Part shown: in pieces, positions 3,227 through 24,579 of the stretch | Layout: every line of letters begins with the position of its first letter | How positions within the stretch are numbered: the stretch's first letter is position 1 | Source of the DNA: Nostoc sp. NOS(2021) | GTDB lineage: Bacteria; Cyanobacteriota; Cyanobacteriia; Cyanobacteriales; Nostocaceae | Length of the DNA: 39,543 nt | Direction: 5' to 3' | Assembly (NCBI RefSeq): GCF_017115025.1 | Contig: NZ_JABXKM010000078.1 | Coordinates: forward strand, 1 to 39,543 | Notes under the pieces: generated by a model | Told to the model about the DNA's origin: nothing | The model's database searches: none | The model's input: the letters and a program-made list of their open reading frames with translations, nothing else | Program-made: the position numbers and the translations under genes

Positions 3227-3287
3227 TCAGCTTCTACTCTCTTAATGTTTTTATCGAGGCTGCTACAATCAGTAATATTCACGTTTT

Positions 3288-4942: not shown

Positions 4943-5878
4943 CTATCCTTTTGGCTGCTTGAAATATTCATGGGCAAGAATTGGCGGATACTTAGGAACT
5001 TCATCTATATCTAAGCAACTCTTAATGCAATTAATTGGAGCATCGTAATTGGGGGCTGTAAAAAAGGCGCATGAGTATCTTTGTTTAGCACTGTGAGATT
5101 GAGTTGGAACTAAAACTCGATGTCGTGTGGCGCAAAACTTATCGTTCGTCCATCGCTGCATTAAATCTGCAACCAATACTATAATTGCATCAGGAATGAA
5201 GGGCGCTACAACCCATTCTCCAGCATTTGTATATACTTCTAACCCTTCTGAATCTTGAAATAAAAATGTGAGAGTACCTATGTCAGTATGTTCTGCAAGA
5301 TAAACTTTTCCTAGTTCTGGAGGCTGATATATAGATGGGTAGTGATGCAAAACTATGCCGTGGTTTTGCTCTGAATATAAATTTGTAAAGTAGTCTTCTG
5401 GCAATTTCAGAGAAATAGCTAAAGCTTGGAATACTCTCAGAGCGCTTTCGTGACAAATGCTGAAAAATTCCATCATCAATTCATGAAACTGAGTCGGCTT
5501 TTGAGGCCATTTATTAGGTTCAAAAAAAGGCTCTTCAATAACACCAACTTTATCTAAAGTAATTTCTTTACCAAAATGAAATCCTTCAGTCATTAGCTCA
5601 TTCGCGTTGTGTTGATCTTCACTCTTTTTAAAATTATGATATCCGCGAAGATTACGGTCTGGAAAGAAAGATGTTTGTTCTTTTTCATTCTCTGGTAGTG
5701 CAAAAAAGCACTCGGCTTGTGAAAAGACTTGAGCGATTAGAGTCTGAGAAATACCATAATTTTTGAGATAGAAACATCCGACCTCATGAATAGCAAGATA
5801 AATTTGGGCAGCGACAGCTTCTTTTGCAGTTGAGTCACTTACAAGGAAAGGATGAAAATCAATGATCGGAATCTGCAT
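4943..5878 (-). CDS. 2-oxoglutarate/Fe(II) oxygenase of the isopenicillin N synthase family
   Basis: This 311-residue protein opens with IPIIDFHPF, the usual DIOX_N start. The iron site is complete: H197 and D199 in LAEHTDIGTLT and H253 in ATRHRVLVP. R267 in QRYSCAFF supplies the RxS motif that binds 2-oxoglutarate in this family. It is therefore expected to be a soluble, catalytically competent oxygenase that hydroxylates, desaturates or cyclises a small substrate. It lies in the same orientation as the NRPS cluster, 61 bp after the substrate-binding protein gene, so a tailoring role on an amino acid or peptide is plausible. Plant-like gibberellin or ethylene-forming enzymes share the fold, and the substrate cannot be told here. 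Confidence 0.88.
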   Translation of the reverse strand: MQIPIIDFHPFLVSDSTAKEAVAAQIYLAIHEVGCFYLKNYGISQTLIAQVFSQAECFFALPENEKEQTSFFPDRNLRGYHNFKKSEDQHNANELMTEGFHFGKEITLDKVGVIEEPFFEPNKWPQKPTQFHELMMEFFSICHESALRVFQALAISLKLPEDYFTNLYSEQNHGIVLHHYPSIYQPPELGKVYLAEHTDIGTLTFLFQDSEGLEVYTNAGEWVVAPFIPDAIIVLVADLMQRWTNDKFCATRHRVLVPTQSHSAKQRYSCAFFTAPNYDAPINCIKSCLDIDEVPKYPPILAHEYFKQPKG

Positions 5879-7739: not shown

Positions 7740-7758
7740 CTTGAAACCACTCCGCAAT

Positions 7759-9101: not shown

Positions 9102-10118
9102 CTACTGACTTTTTGCCAAAATCAAGCCCCGCATTACTTTTAGATGGAACATAAAGTATGATTTTTCAAGATATTGAATGCGATGTTTAATCAACTCATG
9201 AATCTTGGGGTAGTTATACTCTGGCATACTTGGGTAAAGATGATGCTCTACATGGTAATTATTATTCCAGTAATAAAACCTAATGATCGGGTTAGAAATC
9301 ATTGTTCGTGTATCATTCCATAGGTTGTGATTTAAGTCAGACTCACAGCCATAGTGATCTGTAATACTGAAAATAAAACCGAATGGAGAAGCAAAAGATA
9401 TTAATGGTATCCAGTAACCAAAAAACAAAATCCAAGGAAAAATTACGGTCAATCCTGCCATTAATACAATCCAACCCAATAGCAGCCAATTATTTTGTAA
9501 GACAAATTGGCGTTGTTCCGGTGTTTTAAAATAGCTCAAATAAAAGCTATTTGGTAAGGATGATTTCTCTTGTGTATGTGTTTTCAAAGAGTCTAAATAT
9601 AAATCTTTGGTCACTAACCACCAATTCTTGCATACGGCAAGAGGATAAAAATATGTCAAGACCAGAAGATAGGTATTAATATTAGGAAAGGTTTGCCAAG
9701 CTGATGTATCTCCTACGATTTTACCTTTGATTTGTGCTTCTCGATGATGCCCCAGATGAATATATTTATGAAACGAAAAGTTCATCAACAATACTAATGA
9801 TAAGAAAGTTCCCACGAATCGATTAGTATGTTTTGACTTATATAAACTACTGTGAGAGCAATAATGTATTGCCGCAAAAAAACAGACGAATAAAAATCCT
9901 TGAACAAACCAGACTAATAACCACACTGCCCAGTTATTCAACCAGAACCCAATAGCTGAGAGTATTAAATATGTACTAATGACAACGAATGTTTGAACAA
10001 TCGGTCTAAATGTAGGAATCTCATGCAATAAACGCAGTTCTTCGTTAGATATTTGAGTAATTTCACTAATACTAGGTCTGGGATTTTCAATTATTTGATT
10101 AGTTTTTGTAAGTTCCAT
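9102..10118 (-). CDS. Membrane fatty-acid desaturase/hydroxylase family protein
   Basis: This is a di-iron membrane protein of about 338 residues with the three histidine boxes of the fatty-acid desaturase superfamily, numbered from the longer GTG frame: HYCSH (H88, H92), HLGHH (H124, H127, H128) and HVEHH (H292, H295, H296). Four to six membrane helices surround them. The frame can open at a GTG at 10127, but that GTG lies inside the Shine-Dalgarno GAGGTG, which is 7 bases before an ATG at 10118, so I choose the ATG. The gene lies 53 bp downstream of the large NRPS. Members oxidise fatty acids, carotenoids or amino-acid-derived metabolites; rhizobitoxine desaturase is a small-molecule example. 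Here it may introduce a double bond or hydroxyl into a peptide building block. Confidence 0.87.
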   Translation of the reverse strand: MELTKTNQIIENPRPSISEITQISNEELRLLHEIPTFRPIVQTFVVISTYLILSAIGFWLNNWAVWLLVWFVQGFLFVCFFAAIHYCSHSSLYKSKHTNRFVGTFLSLVLLMNFSFHKYIHLGHHREAQIKGKIVGDTSAWQTFPNINTYLLVLTYFYPLAVCKNWWLVTKDLYLDSLKTHTQEKSSLPNSFYLSYFKTPEQRQFVLQNNWLLLGWIVLMAGLTVIFPWILFFGYWIPLISFASPFGFIFSITDHYGCESDLNHNLWNDTRTMISNPIIRFYYWNNNYHVEHHLYPSMPEYNYPKIHELIKHRIQYLEKSYFMFHLKVMRGLILAKSQ

Positions 10119-10171
10119 GTTGTTCACCTCTACTTTGACAAATAAAAATTGAAAAATTAAATATCAATTTA

Positions 10172-13100
10172 TTAACTGTTTAATTGATATTGGATAGCTT
10201 CTGCTAACTGAACTACAGTAGGTTTCTCAAACAGGTAGATCAACGGCAGTTCTACTTGGAAAGCTGACTGTAGTTTGCATATAACTTCAAGAGTTTGAGA
10301 AGAATGTCCTCCAAGTTCAAAAAAGTTATCTTGAGTGCTAATCTGCTCTAGCCCTAAAATTTCTTTCCAGATAGCTAACACAACTTCTTCGATAGGATTT
10401 TGAGGTGCAACAAAATCTCTCGATATTGGGAATGCAGCATTTTTAATTGACAAACTTGGAGGTTCAGATATTAAGATAAGTTCAGCAATATGTCGGTTAG
10501 GATTGATTGTTATTCTTTCCAGCAAAGTCAAAAAATTATCGACCATCTTGGTAATAGTGGCAGCTGCAAATAAATCGGTTCTGTATACAAGCAGACCTTC
10601 AATACCTGTTGATGCTTCTTCGAGCGTTAACTCTAAATCAAACTCTGCGGTATCCTTTGTATCTCTGGCAATAAACTGCTCCTTCAAAATTAGATTTGAA
10701 AATTCTAAATTATCCTCTGGAGTATTTTGAAAGACAAACATTACTTGATTTAGTAATGTGTAACTAGGGTCTCTCACTGGCTGGAGTTCTTCTATTAGCT
10801 TTATCAGGGGCATTTCTTGATGGGCGTAGACACCCAAAGCTACCTCACGCACTCGGCCAAGTACTTCCCGAAAGCTGGGGTTTCCTCCTAAGTTGGTACA
10901 AAATGGAAGTAAATTGACAAAGAAACCAATCAGTCTCTCAGTTTCCACTCTGGTGCGATTGGCAAGAGCGCTGCTAACAATGATGTCTTCCTGTCTTGTA
11001 TAAGAGAAGAGTAATGTCTGGAATGCTGCCAACAAGGTCATAAACAGGGTTACGCCTTCCTGTTGACTCAGCACCTTGAGCGCATCAGTTAACTTCTTGG
11101 AGAGAATTACCGATTGACCTGCACTTTTAAAGGTTCGCGCTGGTGGACGTGGGCGATCGCATGGTAGCTTTAATATAGGTGGACTAATGCCTAAATGCTT
11201 TTGCCAAAACTGAAGCTGAGACTCTAAAACTTGCCCTTGTAACCACTGCCTCTGCCATTGAGCAAAGTCGGTATATTTGATCGGTAACTCAGTTAGTGGT
11301 GACGGCTTACCCTGACAGAAGGCTTCGTAAAGTTCTGCCAGTTCTTGGGTTAAAACACTAAAAGACCAACCGTCAGCAACAATATGGTGTGTGACGGCAA
11401 TGAACAGATACTCTTGTTCATCCAAGCGCCAAAGCTTGCTTCGCAATAACGGGCCTTTTGCCAAATCGAAAGGCTGCTTAATTTCCTTTTCAGCCAGTTG
11501 TGTAACTTGAGTTTCGCGTTCAGTTTCGGGGATGTGCTGGAGATCAATTACTGAAAAGTCAAAGACAGGCTCGTTAACAACAGCATAAACTACTTGTCCA
11601 TTTTTAACCTGAAAAGTTGATCGCAATGTCTCGTGTCGTCGAACAATTTCTCTTAAACTCTCCTCCAATGCTTTCTCATTGAGCGCACCTGTGACGCGAT
11701 AGACTAAGGGCAGGTTATAGATGGAATTGCCTGGATAGAATTGGTCAAAAAACCACAACTCTAGCTGTGTTAAAGAAATTGGTATTGGCTCGTCTGGCGA
11801 TCGCAACCGTTTTAGAGATAACTCCTGCATATCTGGCGCTTTAGCTGTGGCGATTTTTTGGGCTAAAGGTGCGATCGCTGGAGACTCAAACAAACTCAAC
11901 AGGGCTAATTCTATCCCAAATGCTTTGCGCGTTAAAGCAATAACCTGAGTTGCTAGTAAAGAATGTCCCCCCAAATCAAAGAAATTATCATAAATGCCAA
12001 CTTGTTCTAACCCTAAAACATCTCTCCAGATCCCAGCCAAAATTTCTTCGATGGGAGTACGCGGCTCAACAAAAGTTTGACCTAATTGCGGTCGGCTGGT
12101 TGTCGGTTCTGGTAGAGCGCGACGGTTGACTTTACCATTAGGTGTAAGCGGGAAAGATTCCATTTCTACAAAAGCCGATGGAATCATATAATCTGGCAGT
12201 TGCTCGGTCAAAAAAGTCCGCAGTTGTTCGACTGTTATTGTCTCTTGCGGAATTGGGACAAAGTAAGCGACTAAATATTTTTCCCTAGCACTTTCTCCAT
12301 GCACTTTCGCTACTGCTTGGTTAATTTGAGGATGTTTGCTCAGAACGGCTTCAACTTCTCCAAGTTCAACGCGAAAGCCCCGGATTTTTACCAAATCATC
12401 TATCCGTCCCAAAAACTCGATATTCCCATCTGGTAGATATTGAGCTAAGTCCCCAGTCTTGTACAAACAACTTGATTTTAGATTTTGGATTTTGGATTTT
12501 GGATTATCAGAACTTTCAGCAGCTTGGGAATTTTCACTTGTGTCCCTCAATCTAAAATCTAAAATCGGCAATCCAAAATCGGTAAACGGATTGGGGAGAA
12601 ATCTTTGATTGGTTAAATCTGCACGGTTGAGGTAGCCATGAGCCAAACCAGCACCACTAACGTAGAGTTCTCCAGGAACGCCAATCGGCACGGGTTGAAG
12701 ATTGCGATCTAACAGATAAACTTGCACATTGACAGCAGGTTTACCAATCGGTGGATAAATCGGCCATTCATCTGGCTTTTCGCTAAAAGTATAAGCTGTA
12801 ACTAAGTCTGCTTCCGTGGGGCCATAGAAATTGTAGAGTGTACAATTTTCCAGACGCTTAAACAGCTTAATCATCGGCTGAGTAATTTGGAGTTGTTCGC
12901 CACAAGCGATCGCTTCCCTAATATTCTGAAATAAATGTTCTTGCTCTCCGTATATTTCCGCTAATTGCTGCCAAAGGCTAACTGGCAGAAAAACTTTACC
13001 AATTGGATTTAAGCTAAGTAAGTGGATTAATTTATCTAAATCTTTGCGATCGCCTTCAGGAATTATATACAGTGTGCCTCCGAAGCCCCACGCCACGGAT

Positions 13101-15115
13101 ATTTCGTGATAGCTGACATCAAAACTTAGGGAGGCAAACTGAAGCACACCAACACCTGTGGCCATTTTTGCCTGATGGTGTTCTATTAAATTGGTGAGCG
13201 ATCGATGGGGAACAATCGTACCTTTAGGATTTCCGGTAGACCCAGAGGTATATATGATGTAGGCTAAATTATCAGCTGCTACTTCAACTTGCAGATTGCT
13301 CTGAGATTCTTCGCTGATTTCGTTCCCATCTTCATCTAACATAATGAGATGGTGAGCAAAGTTGCCATCCAGCAATGACTTGCAACGTGTTTGAGTTAAG
13401 ACGACTGGTGCTTGAGAATCGTTGAGCATGAAGGCTAAACGCTCTGGCGGATAGGTAGGATCGAGGGGAACGCAAACTCCCCCAGCCTTCAGAGTTCCTA
13501 AAATAGCGATCGCAGCTGCTAGCGATCGCTCCACACAAATACCCACTGGGACATCTGGTTTCACACCGAAGCGTTGCAAGTAGTGGGCGATTTTATTCGC
13601 TTGCTGGTTTAACTCCTGATATGTCAATTGTTGGTTTTCATATACCACCGCCAAGGCTTGGGGTGTTTTTTTGACTTGCTCCTCAAATAATTGATGGATG
13701 CAACGATTGATGGGATGCGCTGCTGAGGTAGCATTCCACTCCACTAAAAGCAAATCTTGCTCTGCTGGAGTTAGTAGCGGTAACTCGCCTGGGGTGCGAT
13801 GAGGATTGACGATAATTCCCTCCAACAAGGTGAGGAAATGACCAGCCATGCGATCAATAATGTCTGCATCAAAGCGTTGGCGATCGTAGTAAATTTTCAC
13901 AGTCATTTCCTCGCCAGGAATTGCCACCACTGTGAGAGGATAATTCGTTTGTCCCTTGTCTTGCAGCTCCCCTATTCTCAAGTTTCCAGGAAGTTGCTGC
14001 AACGTTGCATTTACCGGATAGTTTTCAAATACAACAATGCTTTCAAACAAAAGTTGATTTCGAGGAATTTCACTCACGCCCTGAATATCCACCAGTGGGG
14101 TGTATGAATACTGCTCCCGCTCTATGTACTCTTGTTGCAACAACCGCAGCCAGGTTAACAAATCGGTTGTCTCAGGGATTTTCAGCCGTGCGGGTAAAGT
14201 ATTAATGAACAACCCCACCATCGACTCCACACCAGATAAAGTAGCAGGGCGACCAGATACAGTAGTTCCAAAAACCACGTCAGATTCACCACTGTAGCGA
14301 CTGAGTAGCAACGCCCAAGCAGCTTGTACTAAAGTGGCAAGTGTCAGATGATGTTGTTGAGCAAAAGATTTTAAGGTAGTTGTCGTCTCGGCTGACAGAT
14401 GTTGCGATCGAACGTCAATATTTTGCTGTTGGTGAGAACTTTGCCCGATTGCTCGCTCAACTATCAAAGGCGTAGGTGCAGTGAAACCCTCAAGATTTTT
14501 TTGCCAGAACGCCTTCGCCCCAGCCAAGTCTTGCTGCTGCAACCAATTAATGTAATCCCGGTAAGGGCGACTTGGAGCTAAATATAACTGTTGACCGTTC
14601 TTTATAGACTCGTAGAAAGCAAACAGTTCTTTGAAGATAATCGGCCAGCTCCAGCCATCAAGCAGCAAGTGATGAAAGCTCCAGACAAACTCATAAATTT
14701 CATCGGCTACCCGAATTAAAACAAAGCGCATGAGTGGAGCTTTGTCAAGTTCAAAACCTTGTTTTCTATCTGAATCTAAAAAAGAATTGACACGTATTTC
14801 TTGCTCCTGCTGAGGAAACATCCGCCAGTCTAAATTAGACCAAGGCAAATTCACTTGTTTACGCACCACCTGAACTGATTGTTTGCGGTTCTTCCAAACA
14901 AAAAGAGTCCGCAAAGCCGAGTGTCGCTCTACTAAGAGTTGCCAAGCCCTTTCAAATACATCTGGATCTAAATTGCCATGAATAGTTAATTGAAACTGCT
15001 CAAAATATATTCTCGATTCCGGCTCATAGAGAGTATGAAAGAGCATCCCCTCCTGCATAGGCGAAAGGAGATAGATAGATTCAATATCTTTACTTTGTTT
15101 TTGTACAACTACCAT
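10172..15115 (-). CDS. aerG: Non-ribosomal peptide synthetase C-A-T-C-T, AerG-like
   Basis: This 1647-residue NRPS reads C (SPMQEGMLFHTLYEP; HHLLLDGW at 148-154), A (IIYTSGSTGNPKGT; YNFYGPTEADLV; LYKTGDLAQYL; NGKVNRRALPEP), T (NFFDLGGHSLLATQVI), C (HHIVADGWS) and T (NFFELGGHSSQTLEVI). There is no thioesterase or reductase domain. The terminal C-T pair without an A domain suits joining an amine such as an agmatine-type group, as I recall for aeruginosin AerG proteins. By alignment to GrsA I read the A-domain pocket as D-V-H-F-I-C-F-L-V-K, whose first positions resemble cyanobacterial proline codes (D-V-Q-F/Y-I). That fits a bicyclic proline analogue such as Choi. About 38 residues between motifs A6 and A7 come from a heptamer-bearing repeat. 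Pocket assignment is inference; the domain order is directly readable. Confidence 0.9.
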   Translation of the reverse strand: MVVVQKQSKDIESIYLLSPMQEGMLFHTLYEPESRIYFEQFQLTIHGNLDPDVFERAWQLLVERHSALRTLFVWKNRKQSVQVVRKQVNLPWSNLDWRMFPQQEQEIRVNSFLDSDRKQGFELDKAPLMRFVLIRVADEIYEFVWSFHHLLLDGWSWPIIFKELFAFYESIKNGQQLYLAPSRPYRDYINWLQQQDLAGAKAFWQKNLEGFTAPTPLIVERAIGQSSHQQQNIDVRSQHLSAETTTTLKSFAQQHHLTLATLVQAAWALLLSRYSGESDVVFGTTVSGRPATLSGVESMVGLFINTLPARLKIPETTDLLTWLRLLQQEYIEREQYSYTPLVDIQGVSEIPRNQLLFESIVVFENYPVNATLQQLPGNLRIGELQDKGQTNYPLTVVAIPGEEMTVKIYYDRQRFDADIIDRMAGHFLTLLEGIIVNPHRTPGELPLLTPAEQDLLLVEWNATSAAHPINRCIHQLFEEQVKKTPQALAVVYENQQLTYQELNQQANKIAHYLQRFGVKPDVPVGICVERSLAAAIAILGTLKAGGVCVPLDPTYPPERLAFMLNDSQAPVVLTQTRCKSLLDGNFAHHLIMLDEDGNEISEESQSNLQVEVAADNLAYIIYTSGSTGNPKGTIVPHRSLTNLIEHHQAKMATGVGVLQFASLSFDVSYHEISVAWGFGGTLYIIPEGDRKDLDKLIHLLSLNPIGKVFLPVSLWQQLAEIYGEQEHLFQNIREAIACGEQLQITQPMIKLFKRLENCTLYNFYGPTEADLVTAYTFSEKPDEWPIYPPIGKPAVNVQVYLLDRNLQPVPIGVPGELYVSGAGLAHGYLNRADLTNQRFLPNPFTDFGLPILDFRLRDTSENSQAAESSDNPKSKIQNLKSSCLYKTGDLAQYLPDGNIEFLGRIDDLVKIRGFRVELGEVEAVLSKHPQINQAVAKVHGESAREKYLVAYFVPIPQETITVEQLRTFLTEQLPDYMIPSAFVEMESFPLTPNGKVNRRALPEPTTSRPQLGQTFVEPRTPIEEILAGIWRDVLGLEQVGIYDNFFDLGGHSLLATQVIALTRKAFGIELALLSLFESPAIAPLAQKIATAKAPDMQELSLKRLRSPDEPIPISLTQLELWFFDQFYPGNSIYNLPLVYRVTGALNEKALEESLREIVRRHETLRSTFQVKNGQVVYAVVNEPVFDFSVIDLQHIPETERETQVTQLAEKEIKQPFDLAKGPLLRSKLWRLDEQEYLFIAVTHHIVADGWSFSVLTQELAELYEAFCQGKPSPLTELPIKYTDFAQWQRQWLQGQVLESQLQFWQKHLGISPPILKLPCDRPRPPARTFKSAGQSVILSKKLTDALKVLSQQEGVTLFMTLLAAFQTLLFSYTRQEDIIVSSALANRTRVETERLIGFFVNLLPFCTNLGGNPSFREVLGRVREVALGVYAHQEMPLIKLIEELQPVRDPSYTLLNQVMFVFQNTPEDNLEFSNLILKEQFIARDTKDTAEFDLELTLEEASTGIEGLLVYRTDLFAAATITKMVDNFLTLLERITINPNRHIAELILISEPPSLSIKNAAFPISRDFVAPQNPIEEVVLAIWKEILGLEQISTQDNFFELGGHSSQTLEVICKLQSAFQVELPLIYLFEKPTVVQLAEAIQYQLNS
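12471..12588. repeat. Heptamer-bearing dispersed repeat inserted in frame in the aerG A domain
   Basis: Four tandem heptamers GATTTT(A/G) occupy 12474-12501. About 40 bases further on come TCTAAAATCTAAAATC and AATCCAAAATC, roughly complementary to the heptamer run, so the block can fold back on itself. It encodes about 38 low-complexity residues between the A6 motif (RADLTNQRFLPNPF) and A7 (LYKTGDLAQY), where ordinary A domains have only a few. Such short tandem repeats are well known in Nostoc genomes. The reading frame stays open, so the protein probably tolerates it as a surface loop. The exact ends are estimated. Confidence 0.7.
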
Positions 15116-15200
15116 TGTTTTTTATATGATATTAATTATGTGAGTTATTTCTATATAGCCATCCTAAGAGGTTATTTGAAAAGTGGTATGTTGTAATTAT

Positions 15201-15330
15201 TACCCCCCTTAATCCCCCCTTATAAAGGGGGGAAACTGGAAATCTAGTTCCCTCACGCCACATGCTTCAAGTCGGCGAAGCCGCCCAACGCAGTGGCTCC
15301 CCTTTATAAGGGGAGGGTTAGGGTGGGGTA
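15201..15330. repeat. MITE-like element with imperfect ~32-bp terminal inverted repeats (spacer 15116-15495)
   Basis: The left end (TACCCCCCTTAATCC...) and the right end (...GGGTTAGGGTGGGGTA) are imperfect inverted copies of each other over about 32 bases, each running into the palindrome CCTTATAAAGG or its complement. They flank a core of about 70 bp containing GGCGAAGCCGCC. G-rich repeats of this type are common between Nostoc genes. The element fills most of the 380-bp spacer between the SDR gene and the NRPS gene. The rest of the spacer is AT-rich, with a small repeat of GGCGTACTT near 15408-15430. An open frame across it is not a gene. No coding sequence, promoter or terminator was clear. 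Confidence 0.6.
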
Positions 15331-15495
15331 AAAAAATATTTGACACATCAATTATGACTTTTAAAACATCCTCTAAATAACTCATAAAATCTTCTCTTTC
15401 TTTGCTTGGCGTACTTGGCGTACTTGGCGGTTCGTTAAAAAAAGTAATTGTCACAAATCAAATAAAACCCATAAATTTAAAACTTACCAAATCCC

Positions 15496-16290
15496 TTAGA
15501 AGGCAGATGTTGACAATCCGCCATCGACTGGAATAGTAACACCCGTAATATAGCTAGCACATTCTGACGCTAGAAAAGCAACCAAATTAGCAACCTCATT
15601 AGAAAAACCGCGACGACCAAGAGGAATCATATTATTCGTTCCTTCTATGATTGAATCAACTGTCCGGCCTTCCTGTTGGGCAAATACTTCTAAATATTCT
15701 CTATGCCTTGGAGTATCAATAAGTCCAGGATTGACACAGGTAACTAAAACATTCCACTTAGCAACTTGCGTGGCAACAGCTTTAGTAAAGTTGATTAATG
15801 CAGCATTCCCCACACCCGATCTAACAAGACGACTAGAAGGTTCTTTTCCTGATGTCCCAACAATATTTATAATCCGACCCCATTGCTGATTTTTCATCGT
15901 AGGTAGCACCAGATTCGTCATCCGAATATAGCCCATTAACTTGCCTTCAAAGACAGTTGACCAATCTTCATCAGATAGATTTTCTACTGCTTGATTAGAA
16001 AAATTAGCCCCCTGTGAATTATTTACTAATATATCAATTTTCCCAAATTGTGTGAGAGCTTCTTGGACTAATTTTTGAGAATCACTTGCCTTTTGAACAT
16101 CAGCACAAATAGGGATAACTTTGGCTTGGGAGCTAACCAAACCTTGATAAGCTTGTTCTAATCGCTCAGAATTTCTACCACAAATTATTAACTGACAACC
16201 TTCTGCTGCCAACTTTTGGGCAACGCTATAACCAATACCAGCAGTTGATCCTGTGACTAAAGCTACTTTCTGTGTTAATCCTAAATCCAT
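15496..16290 (-). CDS. aerF: SDR-family protein of the Choi pathway, AerF-like
   Basis: This 264-residue Rossmann-fold short-chain dehydrogenase/reductase has TGSTAGIG at 13-20 for the nucleotide, a divergent NNSQG near residue 90, and GGLSTSAF at the end. In aeruginosin and bacilysin pathways, an SDR acts after the BacA/BacB-type enzymes to reduce the cyclohexenone intermediate. The gene follows the cupin gene by 13 bp and starts behind AAGGAA, so it belongs to the same operon. The usual YxxxK is not present: the aligned positions are S158 and N162 in RSGVGNAALINFTK. A serine is present in GTSG (S147). It may use another proton-transfer arrangement or belong to a non-classical subgroup. The aerF name rests on position and family. 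Confidence 0.8.
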   Translation of the reverse strand: MDLGLTQKVALVTGSTAGIGYSVAQKLAAEGCQLIICGRNSERLEQAYQGLVSSQAKVIPICADVQKASDSQKLVQEALTQFGKIDILVNNSQGANFSNQAVENLSDEDWSTVFEGKLMGYIRMTNLVLPTMKNQQWGRIINIVGTSGKEPSSRLVRSGVGNAALINFTKAVATQVAKWNVLVTCVNPGLIDTPRHREYLEVFAQQEGRTVDSIIEGTNNMIPLGRRGFSNEVANLVAFLASECASYITGVTIPVDGGLSTSAF

Positions 16291-16303
16291 GATGAATATT
16301 CCT

Positions 16304-17002
16304 TTACGAAGTAGTTAGCGATCGCGCCACATCTATTTTAGAAAAAGTATCTTTCAGTGAAAAACGAGAGCCAGACGGAATCAAAATTTCAATCAAAGAT
16401 ACTGCTTCCTCAGAGTAATTGTACCCTCCATAGAGAGCATCAGCAGGAGCATAGTAAACACTACCATATTCTAACTGCTGCTGTTCTTCTTCCACTGCGA
16501 TCGTCAATTTACCATTCAGGATTAGTCCCATTGTTTCACTAGCAGATTGGCGAATTGGTATTATCCCTTTTGGAGGAATTTGGGTGATAATAATCTCAAA
16601 CCAAGAACCAACAACAGACTGACAATCGAAACCTGTAACTTCATCTTGAGTCGGTGAAAGTTTCAGAATAGCCTCCTCACCTTCTTCAGAATTGGTGATG
16701 CGTTTTACATCAAAGGCTAATGCTGTTTCTGAGAAAGGGTTTATGGAACCATGAAGAACATTATAACCAGCCACATAAACTTGCTGAAGGGGTTCAAGAA
16801 CTTCTTTAGTGCCGTTGATGTTAATTTCCAAACGTCCTGAAATTTGCATTCCAATTTGACTTTCGGGATGTCGATGCAATTCAAAAGTAGCTCCTGGTGG
16901 AATAGAGACTAATTGAACAACTGTATCTTGACATTGAAATGCTATTAACTCTACATTTGAATTAATGTTTATGGTTTTTGGCTGGGGAAAAAATTTAGAC
17001 AT
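16304..17002 (-). CDS. aerE: Bicupin, AerE/BacB-like isomerase of the Choi pathway
   Basis: This 232-residue protein is two fused cupin barrels. The first barrel has H43, H45, Q49 and H84 (LHRHPESQ ... VLHG). As I recall, BacB binds metal with H50, H52, Q56 and H91, which has identical spacing. BacB/AerE proteins isomerise the dihydro-hydroxyphenylpyruvate made by BacA/AerD. In the second barrel the equivalent positions are not histidines (PIRQSASET ... ALYGGY), so only one metal site seems likely. The gene lies between the aerD-like and aerF-like genes with short gaps (14 and 13 bp). The enzyme family is clear from motif spacing and context. Confidence 0.86.
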   Translation of the reverse strand: MSKFFPQPKTININSNVELIAFQCQDTVVQLVSIPPGATFELHRHPESQIGMQISGRLEININGTKEVLEPLQQVYVAGYNVLHGSINPFSETALAFDVKRITNSEEGEEAILKLSPTQDEVTGFDCQSVVGSWFEIIITQIPPKGIIPIRQSASETMGLILNGKLTIAVEEEQQQLEYGSVYYAPADALYGGYNYSEEAVSLIEILIPSGSRFSLKDTFSKIDVARSLTTS

Positions 17003-17016
17003 GATTTTTTGCTAAT

Positions 17017-17607
17017 TTAATTTTTTTGAAAAATCGACCAACTCATACGGATGTTTCCATAGATGGAAATAAACTCTAAATCGTAAGCTTGGACAGCATT
17101 CTCATTAGTAATAGCGAAATCGGCTAAACCCTGCATTACCTGAATCGCTGAATCGCTGGTAGAAGGGGACAAATCCACTTGTATTTGTGTTTGATCTTGA
17201 TAATCTGGCAAAAGTTTCGTTAACAAAGGTAGAGGAGCCGGATGGGTAACAATTCTAGAACCGTTAAAAACTACCTCTGTATTTTTTTTCTTAGCCAATC
17301 CATAAACGGGAGTAGGAAATATAAAAATGAAACTTAGATCAAAACTTGGCTCCATGTAAAACTCATTAATTCGGTCGTAAGCATGAGGAACTAAAGCCAA
17401 ATCTACCTTATCTTGCAGCAAGGCTTCTTTAACATCTATAAAAGTATCAAACAACTGAGTGGATGCGGTAAATTGCTCTGAGAGCAGTTGGTTAGTTATG
17501 TACTGGGAAGCATAGTCACTACTAGTAGCACTAGGCCCCAAAGTGCCTATGACTAAATTTTTTGAAGTAGGGATACGAGGTTGAAATTCAATCTGAAATT
17601 CCAGCAT
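17017..17607 (-). CDS. aerD: Prephenate decarboxylase, AerD/BacA-like
   Basis: This 196-residue protein is close in length and pattern to BacA (about 200 residues), a prephenate-dehydratase-like protein that decarboxylates prephenate without aromatising it. Visible family blocks are IGTLGPSATSSDYASQYI at about 21-38, VPHAYDRINEFYMEPS at about 88-103, PVYGLAKK, VTHPAPLPLL, STSDSAIQVMQGLADFAITN and RMSWSIFQK at the end. The reaction starts the route to the octahydroindole amino acid Choi in aeruginosins and to anticapsin in bacilysin. It heads a tight three-gene set with the cupin and the SDR. A 138-bp spacer separates it from the broken NRPS upstream. The chance that it is an ordinary prephenate dehydratase is small given length and neighbours. 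Confidence 0.88.
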   Translation of the reverse strand: MLEFQIEFQPRIPTSKNLVIGTLGPSATSSDYASQYITNQLLSEQFTASTQLFDTFIDVKEALLQDKVDLALVPHAYDRINEFYMEPSFDLSFIFIFPTPVYGLAKKKNTEVVFNGSRIVTHPAPLPLLTKLLPDYQDQTQIQVDLSPSTSDSAIQVMQGLADFAITNENAVQAYDLEFISIYGNIRMSWSIFQKN

Positions 17608-17716
17608 GGTTTTTCCTGAGTAATCATCATGATATTTTTTGGTGGCGAGTCATTGGCAGCTTGGTTATAAATAACCTCCTGGAACTTAGTTTATTTGCAG
17701 AAAACCTTGTTAAAAC

Positions 17717-17731
17717 AGAAACCGGGTTTCT
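17717..17731. repeat. Small dispersed palindrome in the aerB-aerD spacer
   Basis: AGAAACCGGGTTTCT is an inverted repeat with a single unpaired central base. Palindromes of this form occur in many copies between genes in filamentous cyanobacteria. It lies just 3' of the aerB-like stop. No run of T follows, so I do not call it a terminator. Confidence 0.5.
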
Positions 17732-17745
17732 CGGTGTAGACGACT

Positions 17746-19008
17746 TTATTTAATTTCTGCTAGCAGTTCGTCCAAAGCTTCTTGGCTAAATTCAACTTCC
17801 GGGAAATCTGAAGGAGTATAGCCACCTGCCTCTGGGGATAAGCAGTGGGCAATAATAGTTTCTAAGGCTTCTATATACTCATTAGCCAGATTTTCTACAG
17901 TGGCCCAGCAATGGAAATGCTCACTATATTGCCACTCTACTTTCAGCCTCCCTTCAACAACTAATCCATTTACACTTAACAAATGGCGGCGCTGTCCTTT
18001 GGGGCTGTGAATGGAACCGCTAGACTCTTGGGCATATTTCCATCCAAGGGTTGCTAACTGCGTTTGATCAAATTGACCCAAGTAGTTAAAGCTCACCTCA
18101 GCTTGGGGGAACGCTTGTAATTTATTGTGAGCGATCGCATCTAAACTCAGATAGCGCCAGATGCCATAATCAATACCCCGGTTGGGAATACGTCGCAGTT
18201 GCTCTTTTACCGACTTGATAACCTCTCCGAGATCATCTTGATCCTCAAGTTTTAATAGAAGGGGGAATATACTAGTAAACCAGCCTACCGTTCGGGACAA
18301 GTCCACATCATCAAACAAGTCCTCTCGTCCATGACCTTCTAAGTCAATCAGTAGAAAGTAAGAACCTGTCCAACGAGTGAAAGTCTGCACCAATGCCGTC
18401 AGCAGCACATCGTTAATTTGGGTGTTGTAGGCAAAGGGAACATCCTGCAACAGGGTGCGAGTCTGTTCCACACTCAGGTATACAGATACAATCCGACTAG
18501 AAGCTACAGTGTTATCTTGAGCAACAGCAGCATAATCCAACGGTAAAGGAGCAATTGGGAACCGCATTGAGTCCAGCCAGTAATCTAGCTGTGAATGAAG
18601 TTCTTGACTGCGGGCATAATCCTGCAATCGAATTGCCCAATCCTTAAAGGAAGTTGTTTTTGCAGGTAGTTGGATACTTTTGCCAATTTCTAATTGTTTG
18701 TATGCCCCAGATAAGTCTTCTAGCAAAATCCGCCACGAGATCCCATCTACAGCCAAGTGATGGATGACGATGAGTAAACGTCCGGGAGAATTGCCTAAGT
18801 GAAACAGAATGACCCGCATCAGCGGCCCATCTGCTAAGTTCAGCGTCCTTTGTGCTTCGTCCGCCCTTGCTGCGATCGCTTTTAACTGTTCTGCTGGGGG
18901 CAGATATGACAAATCTGCAATGCCCAACGAGACTCCATCGCCCACATCATAGCATGAACGCCAACCGCTCTTGGGGATATGCCGGGTCAAGCGGTACATA
19001 AGCCCCAC
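17746..19008 (-). pseudogene. aerB: 3' fragment of an AerB-like NRPS: truncated epimerization domain
   Basis: From about 18955 downward the frame encodes most of an NRPS epimerization domain: VIHHLAVDGISWRILLEDL, VGWFTSIFPLLL, RGIDYGIWRYL and SFNYLGQFDQ, ending EALDELLAEIK. The first part of the domain is missing. The roughly 18 codons from the GTG at 19008 are A-domain DNA read in the wrong frame (MGLMYRLTRHIPKSGWRS), so this start is not genuine. Aeruginosin AerB proteins end in an E domain that makes a D-amino acid residue. Between the A-domain stub and this piece, the rest of A, the whole carrier domain and the N-terminal part of E are gone (estimated 600 or more residues). Even if translated it would have no carrier to act on. 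Confidence 0.85.
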
Positions 19009-20860
19009 CAGCCTTGAGAATGCCCAGCAATCCTACCACCATTAAGGGCGATGCCTTCTCCTGTCGGAGACGCTGCGCGAACGGCAACGTCTTCGACGAA
19101 CGCTCAATGCAAATTCCCACCAATACCTCTGCACCCACACCTAAAGTTTGCAGATATTGCGCCAACTGATTTGCGCGATCGTTCAACTGTTGGTATGTCA
19201 GGGACTCGTCCTCATAGACCACAGCTACTGCATTTGGTGTTTTTTCAACCTGCTCCTCAAATAACTGATGGATGCATTTGCTGTCAGGATAGGGCGTATA
19301 AGTATCATTCCATTCCACTAGCAACTGATGTCGCTCCTGCTGGTTCAGCAGTGGTAATTCACCAATAAGTTGATTCGGATTAGCAATCATCGCTGCTAAC
19401 AAAGTCTGGAAATGACTTGTCATCCTCGCAATAGTATCTGCCTCAAATAGGTCGCTGTTATATTCCCACGAACCTATCAGTCCCTCTTTTGTCTCCCAAA
19501 CTGCCAAGGTCAAATCAAACTGAGATGTTCCACGTTCTACAAATTGAGGAGTTAGGGTAAGATTAGGCAATTCTAATGTATCCAACAAGAAATTCTCTAA
19601 GACAAACACCACTTGGAATAGGGGATTGTAGCTGAGAGAACGTTCTGGCTGCAACGCTTCTACCACTTGTTCAAAGGGAACATCCTGGTGAGTGTAAGCG
19701 GACGTTGCAACTTGTCGCACTTGAGAGAGAAACTCACTGAAACTAGGATTTCCCTTGATCTGGTGACGCAGTACCAATGTATTGACAAAAAAGCCAATCA
19801 ATGATTCTATCTCTCTGCGGTTGCGGTTGGCAATGGGGCTACCAATGCAGATATCATCTTGACCAGTGTAACGAAACATTAAAACGACGAAAGCCGCCAG
19901 TAGTGTATGAAATAGGGTAGCTCCTGACTGTTGGCTGAAGGTTTTGATTTGCTTGCTCAAATTCTGGTCAATTTGAAATTCCTGGGTAGCACCACAGAAA
20001 GTCTGAACGGGGGGGCGTGGTTTGTCTGTGGGTAGTTCTAATAAGGGTGTAGCACCAGTTAACTGTTGCTTCCAGTAATTTAGTTGCTGTTTTTGAACTT
20101 CCTCGGTCAACCACTGTCGCTGCCAAACTGCAAAATCAGCATACTGGATGGGCAACTCAGGGAGGAGCAAAGGGGAAGCAAGAGTAAAAGCTCGGTAGAG
20201 GATGGACAACTCTTGGATGAATATCCCCATTGACCAGCCATCTGTGATGATATGGTGCATAATTAACACCAGCACGTAGGACTCTGACCCCAGCCGCAGT
20301 AAAGTGACCCGCAACAAAGGGCCATTACTCAAATCAAAAGGTTGGCGAGCTTCTTTTGTGACAATCTGTTGTACCTCTGATTCTTTTAAACCTTGCAAGT
20401 CCAGAATTGGTATAGCGGTTGTCAAGCTGGGGGAAATTACCTGCAAGGGTTTTCCATCTACTGCGGGAAATGTTGTCCGCAGAATTTCGTGACGGCGGAT
20501 GATTTCGTTAATACTCTGCCCAAGAGCTTCTACGTTGAGTACACCTTCAACGCGCAACTGTAAACCCTCGTTATAAAATGGGCTTTGGCTCTCTAATTGA
20601 TAAAGAAACCACATCCTCTGCTGGGCAAAGGATAAAGGCAACTCTCCAGAGCGCTGTATAGATAGTATTGGCTCAGATGAGTCTGTCGCATTCTTAGCTT
20701 CTTCTAGAAAAGCCAGGATTTCTGATTTGCGCCCTAGCAGTTTGTTTTTCAGGTCTGGGTTCATCACTCCCTTGGGAGCGCGATAGTTTAACTGGTCGCC
20801 TTCCAGCCAAATTTTTATGCCTAAACTATTTAAATAAGATACAAATTCTATTATTGTCAT
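18947..20860 (-). pseudogene. aerB: 5' fragment of an AerB-like NRPS: docking-C-partial A
   Basis: These 637 codons encode a TubC-type N-terminal docking region (MTIIEFVSYLNSLGIKIWLE), a complete condensation domain (SFAQQRMWFLYQLE; HHIITDGWS; IGFFVNTLVLRH) and only the first ~110 residues of an adenylation domain (QLLVEWNDTYTPYP to YPQERLAFML). The frame then hits TGA at the junction with the epimerization fragment. The stub lacks A3-A10, so it cannot activate an amino acid. A 48-bp repeat sits in frame inside the stub. The start codon directly follows the end of the aerA-like frame (20861), as expected for adjacent assembly-line genes. Docking and C domains look intact, so the damage seems recent. 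Confidence 0.87.
19049..19096. repeat. 48-bp small dispersed repeat inserted in the aerB A-domain stub
   Basis: A 48-bp block containing TCGGAGACGCTGCGCGAACG splits the motif VGICIERS-PLMVVGLLGILKAGG, adding exactly 16 codons (SKTLPFAQRLRQEKAS). The same triplet (TCG on the coding strand) flanks both sides, which would fit a short target duplication. Sequences with GGAGACGCTGCGCGAACG are characteristic of small mobile repeats in Nostoc genomes. The frame is kept, so this insertion alone need not have killed the gene. Confidence 0.7.
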
Positions 20861-22924
20861 TTATAATACCCCTCCCTCATATTCTTTTTCTGCGTCATCA
20901 ATAGCTACATTCCACTTGATGACGACAGTTAACAGCGCCTCAAGGCTTTCTCCCAAACCGGCGACTGTCGGGGATGCAAAAAAACGATTTGGCGACAATT
21001 CAACAGAAAAAGTCTCACGCAACCGAGAAATGACTTGGAAGGCTAACAAAGAATTTCCTCCCAGTTCAAAGAAGTTGTCGTGAATGCCGATCTGAGATAT
21101 TCCTAAAACTTCTTGCCAGTTTTGAGCTATTTGGCGTTCCGTTTCGTTTCGGGGAGCGATCGCTCCTCTACGAGTCATACCCCTAGCCAGTAAGTCTCGA
21201 TTAATTTCGCCCCTGGCGGTGAGGGGCATTTCTGATAGTTGCACGAAATCACAGTTAACAGTGGTTGTAAAGCGATCGCGCACCGTCAAATCTGATAACT
21301 CTGGTACAGAAGAACCGTTACTCGTCGTGAAATAGGCAGTTAATTTCTGTAACCCTGGAAACTCCGAGGTAAAACGCCGAATTTTGGAATTGCTGCCATC
21401 TAAACCGACTATCAGCTGTGCTTGGTCATGATATAAACCAGCCAAGAAGGAATATAACCCTTGTTGAAGGCTCATCTCATAATAGCCTTGAGCGTGGGTG
21501 ATTTCTTGCCTCTGATAACCCTTGTTGATCCCTGTGTCACGCCAAATTGTCCAAGCAAAGCAATAGCTATGCAACCCACCCAGAGAACGTTGGTATTGAT
21601 TAAAGCTTTCCAAAAAATTGTTAGCAGCAGCATAAGCAGAAATTGTGGCTCCACCAAAGAAACTCGCCAAAGACGAAAAGCTAATGAAAACCCCCTGCCC
21701 TTGCTTCTTAAGCACCTGATGCAGCACCCAAGCACCTAACACTTTGGGACGTAAAATTGCGGCTAAACTCTGCGGTGTTTCATCCACTAATATTTGTTCG
21801 TGATAAGTTCCCGCCAGATGAATCACCCCATCCAGCTGACTTCCCCAATTAGCCTTGACTTTTTCCACCACTTGTTGAGTTGCTTGAAAGTCGCAGATAT
21901 CCACTGCCTCATAAACCACCGATCCAAGCTGCTTTAATTCCTGGTAAAGCTTTACTTTTTCTAATATTTCCGTAGAGACGTTGGATGTAATATCTTCACT
22001 TGGTAAACGAGTTCGCCCTAATAATAATAATTTGGCATTAAAAAACTTAATCAGATATTTAGCAATTTCAACCGCAACACCCCCAAGTCCACCACTTATT
22101 AGATACATCCCCCCTGCTTTAAAGGGAAGTTCTTGCTTTGGTTTGTCTTGCAGATTGACTTTTTCCAAACCTGCAACAAAACGCTGTCCGTTTCGATAAG
22201 CTACCTCTTGCTCTTTTGATAAAAGCTGGAGTTCTTGTAGAATATGGTTCCCATCCACCTGTACCGAATTTGGTGCCAAATCGATGTGACGACAATTTAA
22301 CCAGGGAATTTCCTGGGGAATAGTTTTAATTACACCTAAAACTGGAGATTTTTCATAAGCTATCTTGTCTGTTGGTTGCGTAGACTGGGTGTAGCTAGAA
22401 ACAAATAATAACTGAATTAAATCTTGGAAAACCTGAGTTTTTGCTAAGGCTTGGACAAGAAACAACAAACTGTAGATTCCCTGGTATTGGGCTTTTTCAA
22501 GAGCTTCTGTGCTTTTGATTTCTCCGCTATACTCCTGATAATTCCACAGATGGAGAATCTGACCAATGGTCAGGTTATCTGCTTTTATGGTCTCAAGCAA
22601 TAGCTGATAATGGTCTGCATTTGCAGGAGCTAAACAGAAATGATTGGGACTTTTTTTAGCAAAATCAGATCCGGGTGAAACACACAGATATGGCAGGTTT
22701 TGCTGTTCCAGTTGTTGGCAAATAAATGTCCCCAATCCTAACTCGTCGAGGAATACTATGGTAAGACAACCTTCAGGTAAAGTCTTCAAAACCTTGGCTT
22801 GCTTACGTCGCCAGACTTTTTGGTAGAACCAATCAGGAATAGTGTTGTTATTGCCTAGTAAGATATCGAATTGCTTGAGAATTGGGTTGAACTCACCTGC
22901 ATGGAAGCGATCGCTAAGTTGCGA
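20861..22924 (-). pseudogene. aerA: AerA-like loading module, downstream part: ketoreductase and carrier
   Basis: This is the in-frame continuation of the AMP-ligase frame after a TGA at 22925-22927. It holds a PKS-type ketoreductase (MYLISGGLGGVAVEIAKYL; FISFSSLASFFGG; AYAAANNFLE, with catalytic S, Y and N present) and a carrier domain (DNFFELGGNSLLAFQVI). In aeruginosin AerA the KR reduces a tethered arylpyruvate to an aryllactate, which caps the peptide. No ATG, GTG or good ribosome site follows the stop; the first candidate start is a TTG at 22789 (VLKTLPEG region). Independent translation is therefore unlikely without read-through. The last codons lie next to the ATG of the aerB-like gene. 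Confidence 0.85.
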
Positions 22925-24412
22925 TCACTGGATTTTACCAATGACGGTTTTGGGGATATCTTCTTTAGCTATTAAAATTAAATAATCAGGATTCAACCCT
23001 ACTTTATTCACCACTGTCTGCCGAATTTTCTTCAGTAGCTCTAATAGTTTTTTGTCTTCCGTAATCGGCGAATTGAAGAAGATAGCTAGTTTCTCTGTTG
23101 TACCATCAGCATTGCAGACTGCACAAGCGGCAGTGTAGGACACTTCTATTTCTGCAATTTCTTCAACTACTGCTTCAATTTCATGGCTGTAATAGTTGGC
23201 TCCATTAATAATAATAGTTTCTTTGGCGCGACCAGTAACCACCAATTGTCTGTTGGCAATGAATCCTAAATCTCCAGTATCAAACCAGCCATCTTTTAAA
23301 AAGGATTGATCGTTGGCATCGAGGTTGTTGTAATATCCTGGAGAAACTGCATCACCTTTGACTTGCAAACGACCTATGGTGTCTTCTCTTAATACAGAGT
23401 TTTGATCATCTACTACGCGAATGGTAATTCCAGGAATGACTGAGCCTAAGTCGGTAAAAGTATTATGATTCGGATAGTCTATTTCTACTCGTTTAATAGT
23501 ACCTTGCAATATAGATTTGTCTATCCTATGGAACAACAGAGGTGCTTCTTTGATGGGCTGATAATATGTAATCCCCGAACCCATCTCTGCCATTCCAAAA
23601 GCTGGTCTGATTGCTGTTGCTTTGAGTCCATAGGCAACCAAATTTTCTCGAAAATCCTCCACAGCTTTACTGGATACTGCTTCACCAGCTGTAAGCAGGA
23701 ATTTCACGCAGGATAAGTTCCAGTTTTGTTCTGGTTCTTGTTTGAGGGAGTCATTAACTATGGCATAGGCAAAGTTGGGTGCCCAGCTATGAGTAATCCG
23801 GTATTTGTGGATCAAATCCAACCAGTTGAGGATGCGACCCAAGATATATTCTTTTTGTGCATAAATCAGGGTGCAACCTAATTCGACACCACGGATATGC
23901 CAGTCGGAAATGCTGCCAATGTGATCGAACGGCAGCCAATTCAAAATCAAATCTTCTCGCTTGTGTTGATTGAGTTGGTTAGCTCCTCTGGCGCGAGCAA
24001 TGAGATTTTGATGAGTCAATTGAACGCATTTTGGTATTCCTGTACTGCCAGAAGTCAGGTTGAAAAAAGCCACATCATTTGGTTGACTATGATGATATTG
24101 TTTGCTGGCGGTATTGTTTTTTAATGCTTCAATCGTGCCTACCTTTAGGCGTTCTGCTGGTAGCCATTGCGATAGTAATTCTACTTCTTGTTTGAGAGCT
24201 TCCGTAGTTAAGATGACTGGACTATCTAAGAACTGCCAAATATGACAAAGCTTATCCACCACCTTGTTTGATTCTCTATAAGTCGGTGGCACTTCCATGA
24301 TTACGGGTACAAAGCCTCCTAATAGGCACCCCCAAAAGGTTGGAATGATGTCACAGCTAAGTTCCATCTGCAATATGACTTTGTTTTTTGGCTTGAGTCC
24401 CAAGTTTCTCAA
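22925..24412 (-). pseudogene. aerA: AerA-like loading module, upstream part: AMP ligase without its start
   Basis: This is an AMP-binding ligase of the type that loads arylpyruvates in aeruginosin AerA and related starter modules. Motifs are FFNLTSGSTGIPKCVQLTH (A3), NWLPFDHIGS, GWFDTGDLG (A7), VVTGRAKETIIINGANYYSH (A8) and PKTVIGKIQ (A10, with its lysine). A TGA follows the glutamine where family members have arginine; CGA to TGA would be one base change. The 24412 start is an internal TTG. The same frame clearly continues upstream through GWTELRQSYAELLEVAERIL to about 24478 and then into the tandem repeat, with no ATG or GTG before a TAA. The first few dozen residues of the domain are missing. 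The gene is broken at both ends of this piece. Confidence 0.87.
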
Positions 24413-24478
24413 ACCAGCAAGAATTCGCTCTGCAACTTCAAGTAACTCAGCATAGGATTGACGTAGTTCTGTCCATCC

Positions 24479-24579
24479 ACTTAAGCGGACAGTTAGGACA
24501 GTTAAGACATTTAAACGGACAGTTAGGACAGTTAAGACACTTAAGCGGACAGTTAGGACAGTTAAGACACTTAAGCGGG
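24479..24579. repeat. Three 30-bp tandem repeats plus a partial copy at the broken 5' end of aerA
   Basis: Units lie at 24479-24508, 24509-24538 and 24539-24568, with an 11-base partial copy to 24579. Each contains CGGACAGTTAGGACAGTTAA; the middle unit differs at two positions. On the minus strand the array is open and in frame with the AMP ligase, encoding RLSVLTVLTV repeated. The motif is not part of any AMP-ligase domain. It replaces the expected N-terminal coding sequence and lies next to an IS remnant. Confidence 0.9.

What the first reader, a model, noticed from the sequence alone, without database searches (positions are those of the whole stretch)
15496..24478. Decaying aeruginosin-type gene cluster: intact Choi pathway behind a broken starter and second module
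An AMP ligase-KR-carrier loading module, a C-A-..-E NRPS, and BacA-, BacB- and SDR-like genes followed by a C-A-T-C-T NRPS form the hallmark set of aeruginosin biosynthesis. Here the first two genes carry at least three independent lesions (no start, one nonsense codon, one large deletion), yet aerD-, aerE-, aerF- and aerG-like genes and most tailoring genes are uninterrupted. Either decay is recent, or the Choi branch is kept for another product. Gene identification is from motifs and order; timing is inference.
Basis: partly seen in the sequence, partly recalled or inferred. Interest (0 to 1): 0.85.

Follow-up and report, generated by a model that had tools for sequence, protein, structure and literature searches.

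The report
Recently broken aeruginosin gene cluster
A Nostoc-type cyanobacterium carries the gene set for an aeruginosin-like protease inhibitor in which the two first assembly-line genes are broken while the rest still reads through, which looks like an ordinary, recent loss of a natural-product pathway.

Summary
Confirmed: window 10172-24478 (minus strand) is an aeruginosin-type cluster with broken aerA and aerB and uninterrupted aerD, aerE, aerF, aerG and tailoring genes. Seven close Nostoc relatives carry the core cluster (mostly 80-94% aa identity) with continuous aerA and aerB. Lesions: (1) about 1 kb lost between a leader repeat array and aerA codon ~223; (2) an in-frame stop at 22927-22925, a sense codon in 7 of 7; (3) 1.7-1.8 kb lost from aerB (most of A, all of T, start of E), out of frame. 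A fourth change is a repeat insertion between aerF and aerG. No close copy of the lost parts was found in the held genome. Codon models show purifying selection on all 16 segments along the window's branch; the aerA pieces show no relaxation, so the decay is recent. The intact genes are no better constrained than the broken ones (pooled omega ratio 1.35 against 1.13), so nothing favours a Choi branch kept for another product. The gene set fits aeruginosin 865. Aeruginosin clusters inactivated by deletion are published for Planktothrix: a new member of a known kind. By-product: the leader array occurs at four loci in the genome, three of them upstream of biosynthetic genes.

The parts
24478..24578 (-). 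30-bp tandem array built of 9-bp TTAACTGTC-like units; leader array of aerA, now joined directly to the middle of aerA
   Evidence: same-strand array 270-327 bp upstream of the aerA ORF in 6 of 7 close relatives; exact pattern at 4 loci in the own genome
22928..24477 (-). aerA piece 1: AMP-ligase domain without its first ~222 codons
   Evidence: homology to 7 of 7 relatives begins at 24477; 89-92% aa identity
22925..22927 (-). in-frame stop inside aerA
   Evidence: sense codon in 7 of 7 relatives
20861..22924 (-). aerA piece 2: beta-ketoacyl-N, KR and carrier domains
   Evidence: 88-91% aa identity to 7 relatives
18947..20860 (-). aerB piece 1: TubC_N docking domain, C domain, first ~91 of 384 positions of the A domain
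18945..18951 (-). aerB deletion junction; 1676-1778 nt (net) present in 7 of 7 relatives are missing; frame changes here
17746..18945 (-). aerB piece 2: E domain without its first ~91 profile positions
17017..17607 (-). aerD-like (BacA/prephenate decarboxylase type), intact
   Evidence: 89-94% aa identity to 7 close relatives
16304..17002 (-). aerE-like cupin (BacB type), intact
15496..16290 (-). aerF-like SDR, intact
15116..15495 (-). aerF-aerG spacer of 380 bp with extra DNA: MITE-like repeat (inverted arms 15203-15238/15291-15326, outer arms 15135-15150/15375-15390)
   Evidence: spacer 93-134 bp in 7 of 7 close relatives
10172..15115 (-). aerG-like C-A-T-C-T NRPS, intact
   Evidence: 88-89% aa identity to 7 close relatives
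9102..10127 (-). fatty-acid desaturase-like tailoring gene (found in 4 of 8 relatives)
7759..8958 (-). aldo/keto reductase-like gene
5940..7796 (-). extracellular solute-binding protein family 5
4943..5878 (-). 2OG-Fe(II) oxygenase; candidate for the second hydroxyl on Choi (inferred)
2732..4922 (-). PMT_2-type glycosyltransferase (3288-4922) and GtrA-like membrane protein (2732-3226)
71..2722 (-). conserved unknown gene (1583-2722) and MBOAT acyltransferase (71-1537); the contig starts at window 1

Best explanation
A recently inactivated aeruginosin cluster of the aeruginosin-865 type in a Nostoc lineage. [quoted passage not shown] a 2OG oxygenase, a glycosyltransferase and an MBOAT would decorate the product (inferred from the families and from PMC10143770). 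In this genome a ~1-kb deletion from the leader array into aerA, an in-frame stop in aerA and a frameshifting 1.7-kb deletion in aerB (lesions shown) removed starter loading and the second module, so no complete peptide can form (inferred). The remaining frames are open because too little time has passed, not because selection keeps them (supported by the omega tests, not proven).
For: Core cluster aerA to sbp5 colinear in 7 close relatives, all with continuous aerA and aerB. Lesions mapped. No close copy of either lost part found elsewhere in the held genome: best 38% protein identity for the aerA N-terminus; for the aerB part best 73% DNA over 664 bases, higher identities only over 131 bases or less (40 of 198 first-look candidates scored). 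omega on the window branch: aerA ligase 0.205 [0.116-0.362], aerA KR 0.198 [0.112-0.349], aerB C-A 0.427 [0.217-0.844], aerB E 0.382 [0.173-0.845]; omega = 1 is rejected in all 16 segments tested. If omega were 1 after the break, the upper limits put aerA's broken time at 21% (ligase) and 13% (KR) of the branch. Pooled omega ratio to background: broken 1.13 [0.83-1.56], intact 1.35 [1.12-1.63].
Against: No reads, transcript or mass spectrum was available, so the stop rests on one assembly. The window is one whole contig of 39543 bases, so genes beyond it are unseen. The assignment to aeruginosin 865 rests on family names, not on comparison with its own cluster sequence. Two of 16 segments show nominal relaxation (aerB C-A, 2dlnL 5.14; aerG, 2dlnL 6.53); neither stands after Bonferroni for 16 tests. 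For the aerB pieces the limits allow up to 77-80% of the branch without constraint, so the recency rests on aerA.
Confidence: 0.88

Rival explanations
1. The Choi branch (aerD-aerF, perhaps aerG) is kept by selection to make free Choi or to feed another synthetase.
For: aerD, aerE, aerF, aerG are uninterrupted; the aerB-aerD spacer is 138 bp against 142 bp in 7 relatives and 84-90% identical, and could hold an own promoter.
Against: aerD-F are not more constrained on the window branch than in relatives (pooled ratio 1.23 [0.77-1.97]) nor detectably more than the broken genes (1.13 [0.83-1.56]); tailoring genes useless for free Choi are equally intact; an insertion separates aerF and aerG.
Confidence: 0.05
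2. The lesions are assembly or sequencing errors and the cluster is intact.
For: Draft of 346 contigs; no reads seen.
Against: The two junctions join unlike sequences with at most a few shared bases visible in the alignments, which repeat collapse would not be expected to produce; no close copy of the lost parts was found elsewhere in the assembly; no internal stop in 16.7 kb of neighbouring cluster genes.
Confidence: 0.05
3. The pieces work as split proteins, helped in trans by the intact AerA-like starter on contig C313 of the same genome.
For: C313 holds a 1418-aa AL-KR-T protein, 49% identical to a relative's AerA.
Against: aerB has no usable A domain and no carrier, so nothing can be loaded or passed on at position 2; the C313 starter heads its own NRPS/PKS genes.
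Confidence: 0.02

Closest known systems
Aeruginosin 865 (Nostoc sp. Lukesova 30/93; described in PMC10143770, passages read)
   Same: Predicted features fit: Hpla starter (AL-KR-T AerA), D-Leu (AerB with E), dihydroxylated Choi carrying ManA and HA (2OG oxygenase, glycosyltransferase, MBOAT), agmatine end (AerG C-A-T-C-T). Expansion of ManA and HA to mannuronic and hexanoic acid is recalled.
   Different: Here aerA and aerB are broken. The cluster of the 865 producer itself was not compared.
   Same: Same order from aerA to the solute-binding protein gene (desaturase patchy), same leader array in 6 of 7.
   Different: Continuous aerA (ORF 1426-1529 aa) and aerB (1582-1651 aa); short aerF-aerG spacer. 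Downstream, CHAB 5836 lacks the 2OG to MBOAT genes in the stretch fetched, CCCryo lacks PMT_2 and GtrA, UCD121 is cut by its contig end.
Inactive aer clusters of Planktothrix (PMC10744761, passages read)
   Same: The paper says that strains inactive in aeruginosin synthesis typically showed a large deletion of aer genes or an IS element; 7 of the 91 strains in its Cluster II had large gene cluster deletions.
   Different: Other genus; breakpoints were not compared.
Suomilide cluster of Nostoc sp. KVJ20 (bsl) and similar unnamed clusters G022, G030
   Same: KVJ20 AerD, AerE, AerF and partial AerG at 62-78% identity; solute-binding protein, 2OG oxygenase and MBOAT at 48-76% in G022 and G030, whose product is not known.
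   Different: KVJ20's first gene has sulfotransferase and FkbM-methyltransferase domains instead of AL-KR; Abn core instead of Choi (PMC10157211, parts read).

Membership tests
Aeruginosin-family gene cluster | AerB, AerG, AerD, AerE, AerF present (common to all per PMC8609519, passages read) | tested here: met
   All five recognised by domains and by homology to 7 close relatives; AerE and AerF nearest to solved chains 5zbe and 6jh7. That these chains are the Microcystis AerE and AerF is recalled. aerB is present only as two pieces.
Aeruginosin-family gene cluster | Loading module AerA with A/AL, KR, carrier | tested here: met
   Domains present as two pieces split by a stop, N-terminus missing.
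Aeruginosin-family gene cluster | Complete assembly line able to make the tetrapeptide | tested here: not met
   aerA truncated and interrupted, aerB without most of A, all of T, start of E. It is therefore filed as a decayed member, not as a working one.
Aeruginosin 865 subtype | Tailoring set for dihydroxy-Choi, uronic sugar, fatty acid and agmatine | tested here: inconclusive
   2OG oxygenase, PMT_2 + GtrA, MBOAT, C-A-T-C-T AerG found; assignment to steps is inference.
Aeruginosin 865 subtype | Product seen by mass spectrometry | not testable with these tools
   No extract data.
Recently inactivated biosynthetic cluster (pseudogenes) | Derived lesions absent from relatives, with codons still showing past purifying selection | tested here: met
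   Lesions in 0 of 7 close relatives; omega below 1 in all 16 segments.

The most novel reading that the evidence does not exclude
The loss of aerA and aerB left a shorter pathway that still makes Choi, or a Choi-agmatine fragment finished by the tailoring genes, and selection now keeps this remnant for a new role.
Probability: 0.04. Interest if true: 0.65.

Novelty: new member of a known kind. Interest (0 to 1): 0.22.

Why it matters
It is a well-resolved case of natural-product pathway loss caught early: three lesions in the first two genes, the rest still open, with intact relatives for comparison. It warns against predicting a product from core genes (aerD-G) alone. Planktothrix has the same phenomenon in print, so the case itself is not surprising. 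The leader array, found at four loci of which three precede biosynthetic genes, would matter more if it proves regulatory.

Tried and rejected
Programmed readthrough of the stop: rejected, the codon is a sense codon in 7 of 7 relatives and two further lesions exist. Relocation of the missing parts: no close copy found. Plasmid-borne close copy: none; of 3 plasmid records matched, the best covers 4% of the query. A decayed microviridin neighbour: the MvdD-like gene on C168 first looked interrupted but its stop lies about ten residues before the end of the relative's protein, so I dropped the idea. Permease as control gene for omega: orthologue in 1 of 8 relatives only, not used. Fatty-acid desaturase as a constant part: present in 4 of 8 relatives. 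Promoter and terminator scan: 27 sites against 20.6 expected (sd 4.3) and 9 against 9.1, uninformative. Rfam: no match in the window at gathering thresholds. Array in plasmid records: no match. Papers on the repeat unit: a full-text search for TTAACTGTC found 88 papers, and the 10 listed look unrelated by title; PMC4679880 (abstract and passages) describes TAACTGA heptamer repeats in cyanobacteria and other bacteria, a different unit. Small dispersed repeats in Nostoc: one paper listed, not read.

Rows dropped before counts: distant genome G046 from aerA ligase, aerA KR and aerE (identity under 70%); UCD121 from pmt (coverage 0.29); D. muscorum and G016 from sbp5, because a stop at codon 6 of the aligned stretch, upstream of their likely start, upset the codon alignment. 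G020, G022, G030 and G039 were not used in the codon models.

The odds did not change.
Full report
What is there. On the minus strand the window holds, 5' to 3', an AMP ligase piece (24477-22928), a stop (22927-22925), a KR-carrier piece in the same frame (22924-20861), a TubC_N-C-A(part) piece (20860-18947), an E-domain piece in another frame (to 17746), then AerD-, AerE-, AerF- and AerG-like genes and eight further genes down to the start of the contig. AerE and AerF are far closer to solved chains 5zbe and 6jh7 than to bacilysin BacB or YwfH. That those two chains are the Microcystis AerE and AerF is recalled; PMC8609519 (passages read) cites a paper on the AerE-type cupin.

Relatives. AerE is found in 13 of 53 genomes of the genus, the window's own included. 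Seven of the other twelve carry the cluster from aerA to the solute-binding protein gene in the same order, gene by gene mostly 80-94% identical in aa. Further downstream they vary: CHAB 5836 lacks the 2OG to MBOAT genes in the stretch fetched, CCCryo lacks PMT_2 and GtrA, UCD121 runs into its contig end, and the desaturase is found in 4 of 8. The named collection gave 17 loci with AerD, by which the genus is Nostoc in the broad sense and five of the seven relatives get names. Of these 17, seven have continuous aerA and aerB frames (in Iningainema tapete as one 2944-aa ORF), one is cut by its contig end in aerA, and in nine the aerB-like ORF runs off the locus, so that their starter is not seen. 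One of the nine, KVJ20, shows a different first gene in a wider stretch (L024).

Lesion 1. In relatives aerA begins 222 codons upstream of the point where the window's homology starts, as judged in five of the seven; CHAB 5836 and CCCryo have longer ORFs. In the window that point abuts a 30-bp tandem array. The same kind of array lies on the same strand 270-327 bp upstream of the aerA ORF in 6 of 7 close relatives, so the simplest event is a deletion of 952-998 nt (5 of 6 relatives measured; 1241 in the sixth) from the leader array into aerA. A caveat: the window's array is about as similar to arrays elsewhere in its own genome (75-84%) as to the relatives' (71-83%), so a rearrangement that brought another array is not excluded. 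DNA beyond the array does not match the relatives: the next gene upstream, an adenosine deaminase, is not beside aer in any of 8 relatives (on another contig in five, at least 0.3 Mb away in three), and a small ORF with a weak transposase-type match (23.7 bits, below the cut-off 27) lies between.

Lesion 2. The stop at 22927-22925 is a sense codon in 7 of 7 relatives.

Lesion 3. aerB lacks 1676-1778 nt (net) compared with each of 7 relatives, always 2 mod 3, so the E piece is out of frame. Lost are most of the A domain, its C-terminal subdomain, the carrier and the start of E. The junction shows at most a few shared bases (four relatives aligned there).

Change 4. The aerF-aerG spacer is 380 bp against 93-134 bp in 7 relatives; the more distant G046 has a long spacer too, which I did not examine. 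The extra DNA contains a hairpin-rich repeat with inverted arms (RNA fold z = -4.75) and many partial copies in the genome (66 matches listed, itself included; 40 of 222 candidates scored). Whether it affects expression of aerG is unknown.

Are the missing parts elsewhere? No close copy was found. The best match to the lost aerA N-terminus is 38% identical, in an AerA-like paralogue on contig C313. For the lost aerB part the best match is 73% over 664 bases; higher identities occur only over 131 bases or less, among them short dispersed repeats. The assembly is 95.7% complete, so a copy in a gap is not fully excluded.

Selection. I fitted codon models with a separate omega on the window branch (own implementation, per-gene FastTree topology, 4 to 8 relatives). 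All 16 segments give omega with an upper limit below 1. aerA pieces: 0.205 and 0.198 against background 0.194 and 0.252. aerB pieces: 0.427 and 0.382 against 0.205 and 0.326. aerD 0.110/0.157, aerE 0.307/0.185, aerF 0.106/0.084, aerG 0.308/0.205. Twelve of 16 segments are higher than background; two are nominally significant (aerB C-A 2dlnL 5.14, aerG 6.53). Control with other lineages as foreground: of 14 tests on the aerB pieces one is nominally significant (UCD121 on aerB C-A, 2dlnL 4.43, towards lower omega), and D. muscorum has an aerB C-A omega (0.51) above the window's without significance, so the window's aerB value is not outstanding. A control gene outside the cluster shows 0.105 against 0.086 (one gene only). 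Pooled ratios, from log ratios weighted by approximate standard errors: broken 1.13 [0.83-1.56], aerA alone 0.91 [0.61-1.36], aerB alone 1.63 [0.97-2.74], aerD-G 1.40 [1.06-1.85], tailoring 1.31 [1.02-1.68]. Reading: the break is recent (upper limits for aerA 13-21% of the branch if omega is 1 after the break), and the intact genes are, if anything, slightly relaxed as well. There is no sign that the Choi genes are held more tightly. A weakness: gene trees differ, and aerB's branch is shorter than its neighbours' (0.14-0.18 against 0.21-0.56), which suggests recombination in aerB.

Product. The gene set fits aeruginosin 865 (Hpla, D-Leu, Choi with ManA and HA on its two hydroxyls, agmatine; PMC10143770, passages read). 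This is inference from families. [quoted passage not shown] No prenyltransferase or Rieske-type oxygenase, which Aeap formation needs (PMC13122637, passages read), was seen among the cluster ORFs scanned; other ORFs of the window were not all scanned.

Novelty. PMC10744761 (passages read) reports that Planktothrix strains inactive in aeruginosin synthesis typically carry a large deletion of aer genes or an IS element, with large cluster deletions in 7 of 91 strains of one group. I found no paper describing this particular locus (listings; the organism's name is unknown, so this is a weak negative), but the kind is known. Hence a new member of a known kind and a low score.

By-product. The exact pair of array units occurs at 10 positions in only four loci of the 7.6-Mb genome, with none for the reversed-pattern control: upstream of aerA here, of the AerA-like paralogue on C313 (645 bp, with a 134-aa ORF without Pfam match between), of a terpene cyclase on C181 (387 bp; 754 aa, NF041168; geosmin-type by recall) and of a laminin-G domain protein on C202 (434 bp, cut by the locus end), whose link to biosynthesis is unknown. 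In relatives it also precedes the first gene of the KVJ20 cluster (678 bp) and aerA in Dendronalium (143 bp); in G046 one array precedes a 130-aa ORF without Pfam match, against the pattern. Only about 4% of strand positions in 12 loci lie within 800 bp upstream of an ORF of at least 900 aa on the same strand, but the loci were chosen for such genes, so this is no fair test. Whether the array is a regulatory leader element is untested; TAACTGA heptamer arrays in other bacteria were proposed as translational regulators (PMC4679880, abstract and passages).

Noticed in passing
window 24478-24578; own genome C181:43347-43455, C202:302-423, C313:46573-46709: Tandem array of 9-bp TTAACTGTC-like units at four loci in the genome, on the same strand a few hundred bp upstream of a gene: aerA, an AerA-like starter, a terpene cyclase, and a laminin-G protein of unknown role; also upstream of aerA in 6 of 7 close relatives. 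Candidate shared leader or regulatory element. One array in G046 precedes a 130-aa ORF without Pfam match.
   Followed up: partly
window 19059-19082: A 24-base dispersed repeat (8 matches to its degenerate pattern in the genome) sits in frame inside the aerB A domain, nested within a shorter in-frame insert shared with two of the four relatives aligned there.
   Followed up: partly
L067 2359-6615 (own genome C313:47359-51615): Intact AerA-like starter (AL-KR-T, 1418 aa, 49% to a relative's AerA) followed by large NRPS and PKS genes, one of them with a thioesterase.
   Followed up: partly
window 24612-25342: Transposase-like small ORF (24755-25165, weak match) and lost linkage: the adenosine deaminase upstream is not beside aer in any of 8 relatives; MvdD-like genes that flank aerA in 3 of 7 relatives lie at the start of contig C168 here.
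   Followed up: partly
window 15116-15495: Hairpin-rich MITE-like insertion between aerF and aerG, many partial copies in the genome.
   Followed up: partly
window 28930-29088: Two 79-bp copies containing GGGATTGAAAC and GGACTGAAAC segments, resembling a relic of cyanobacterial CRISPR repeats (resemblance recalled).
   Followed up: no
L057 191-9025: In Iningainema tapete aerA and aerB form one 2944-aa ORF.
   Followed up: no
window 9102-10127; L050 17182-17760: The desaturase gene is patchy: present in 4 of 8 relatives; in three others (L050, L052, L065) a 192-193-aa ORF sits at that place.
   Followed up: no
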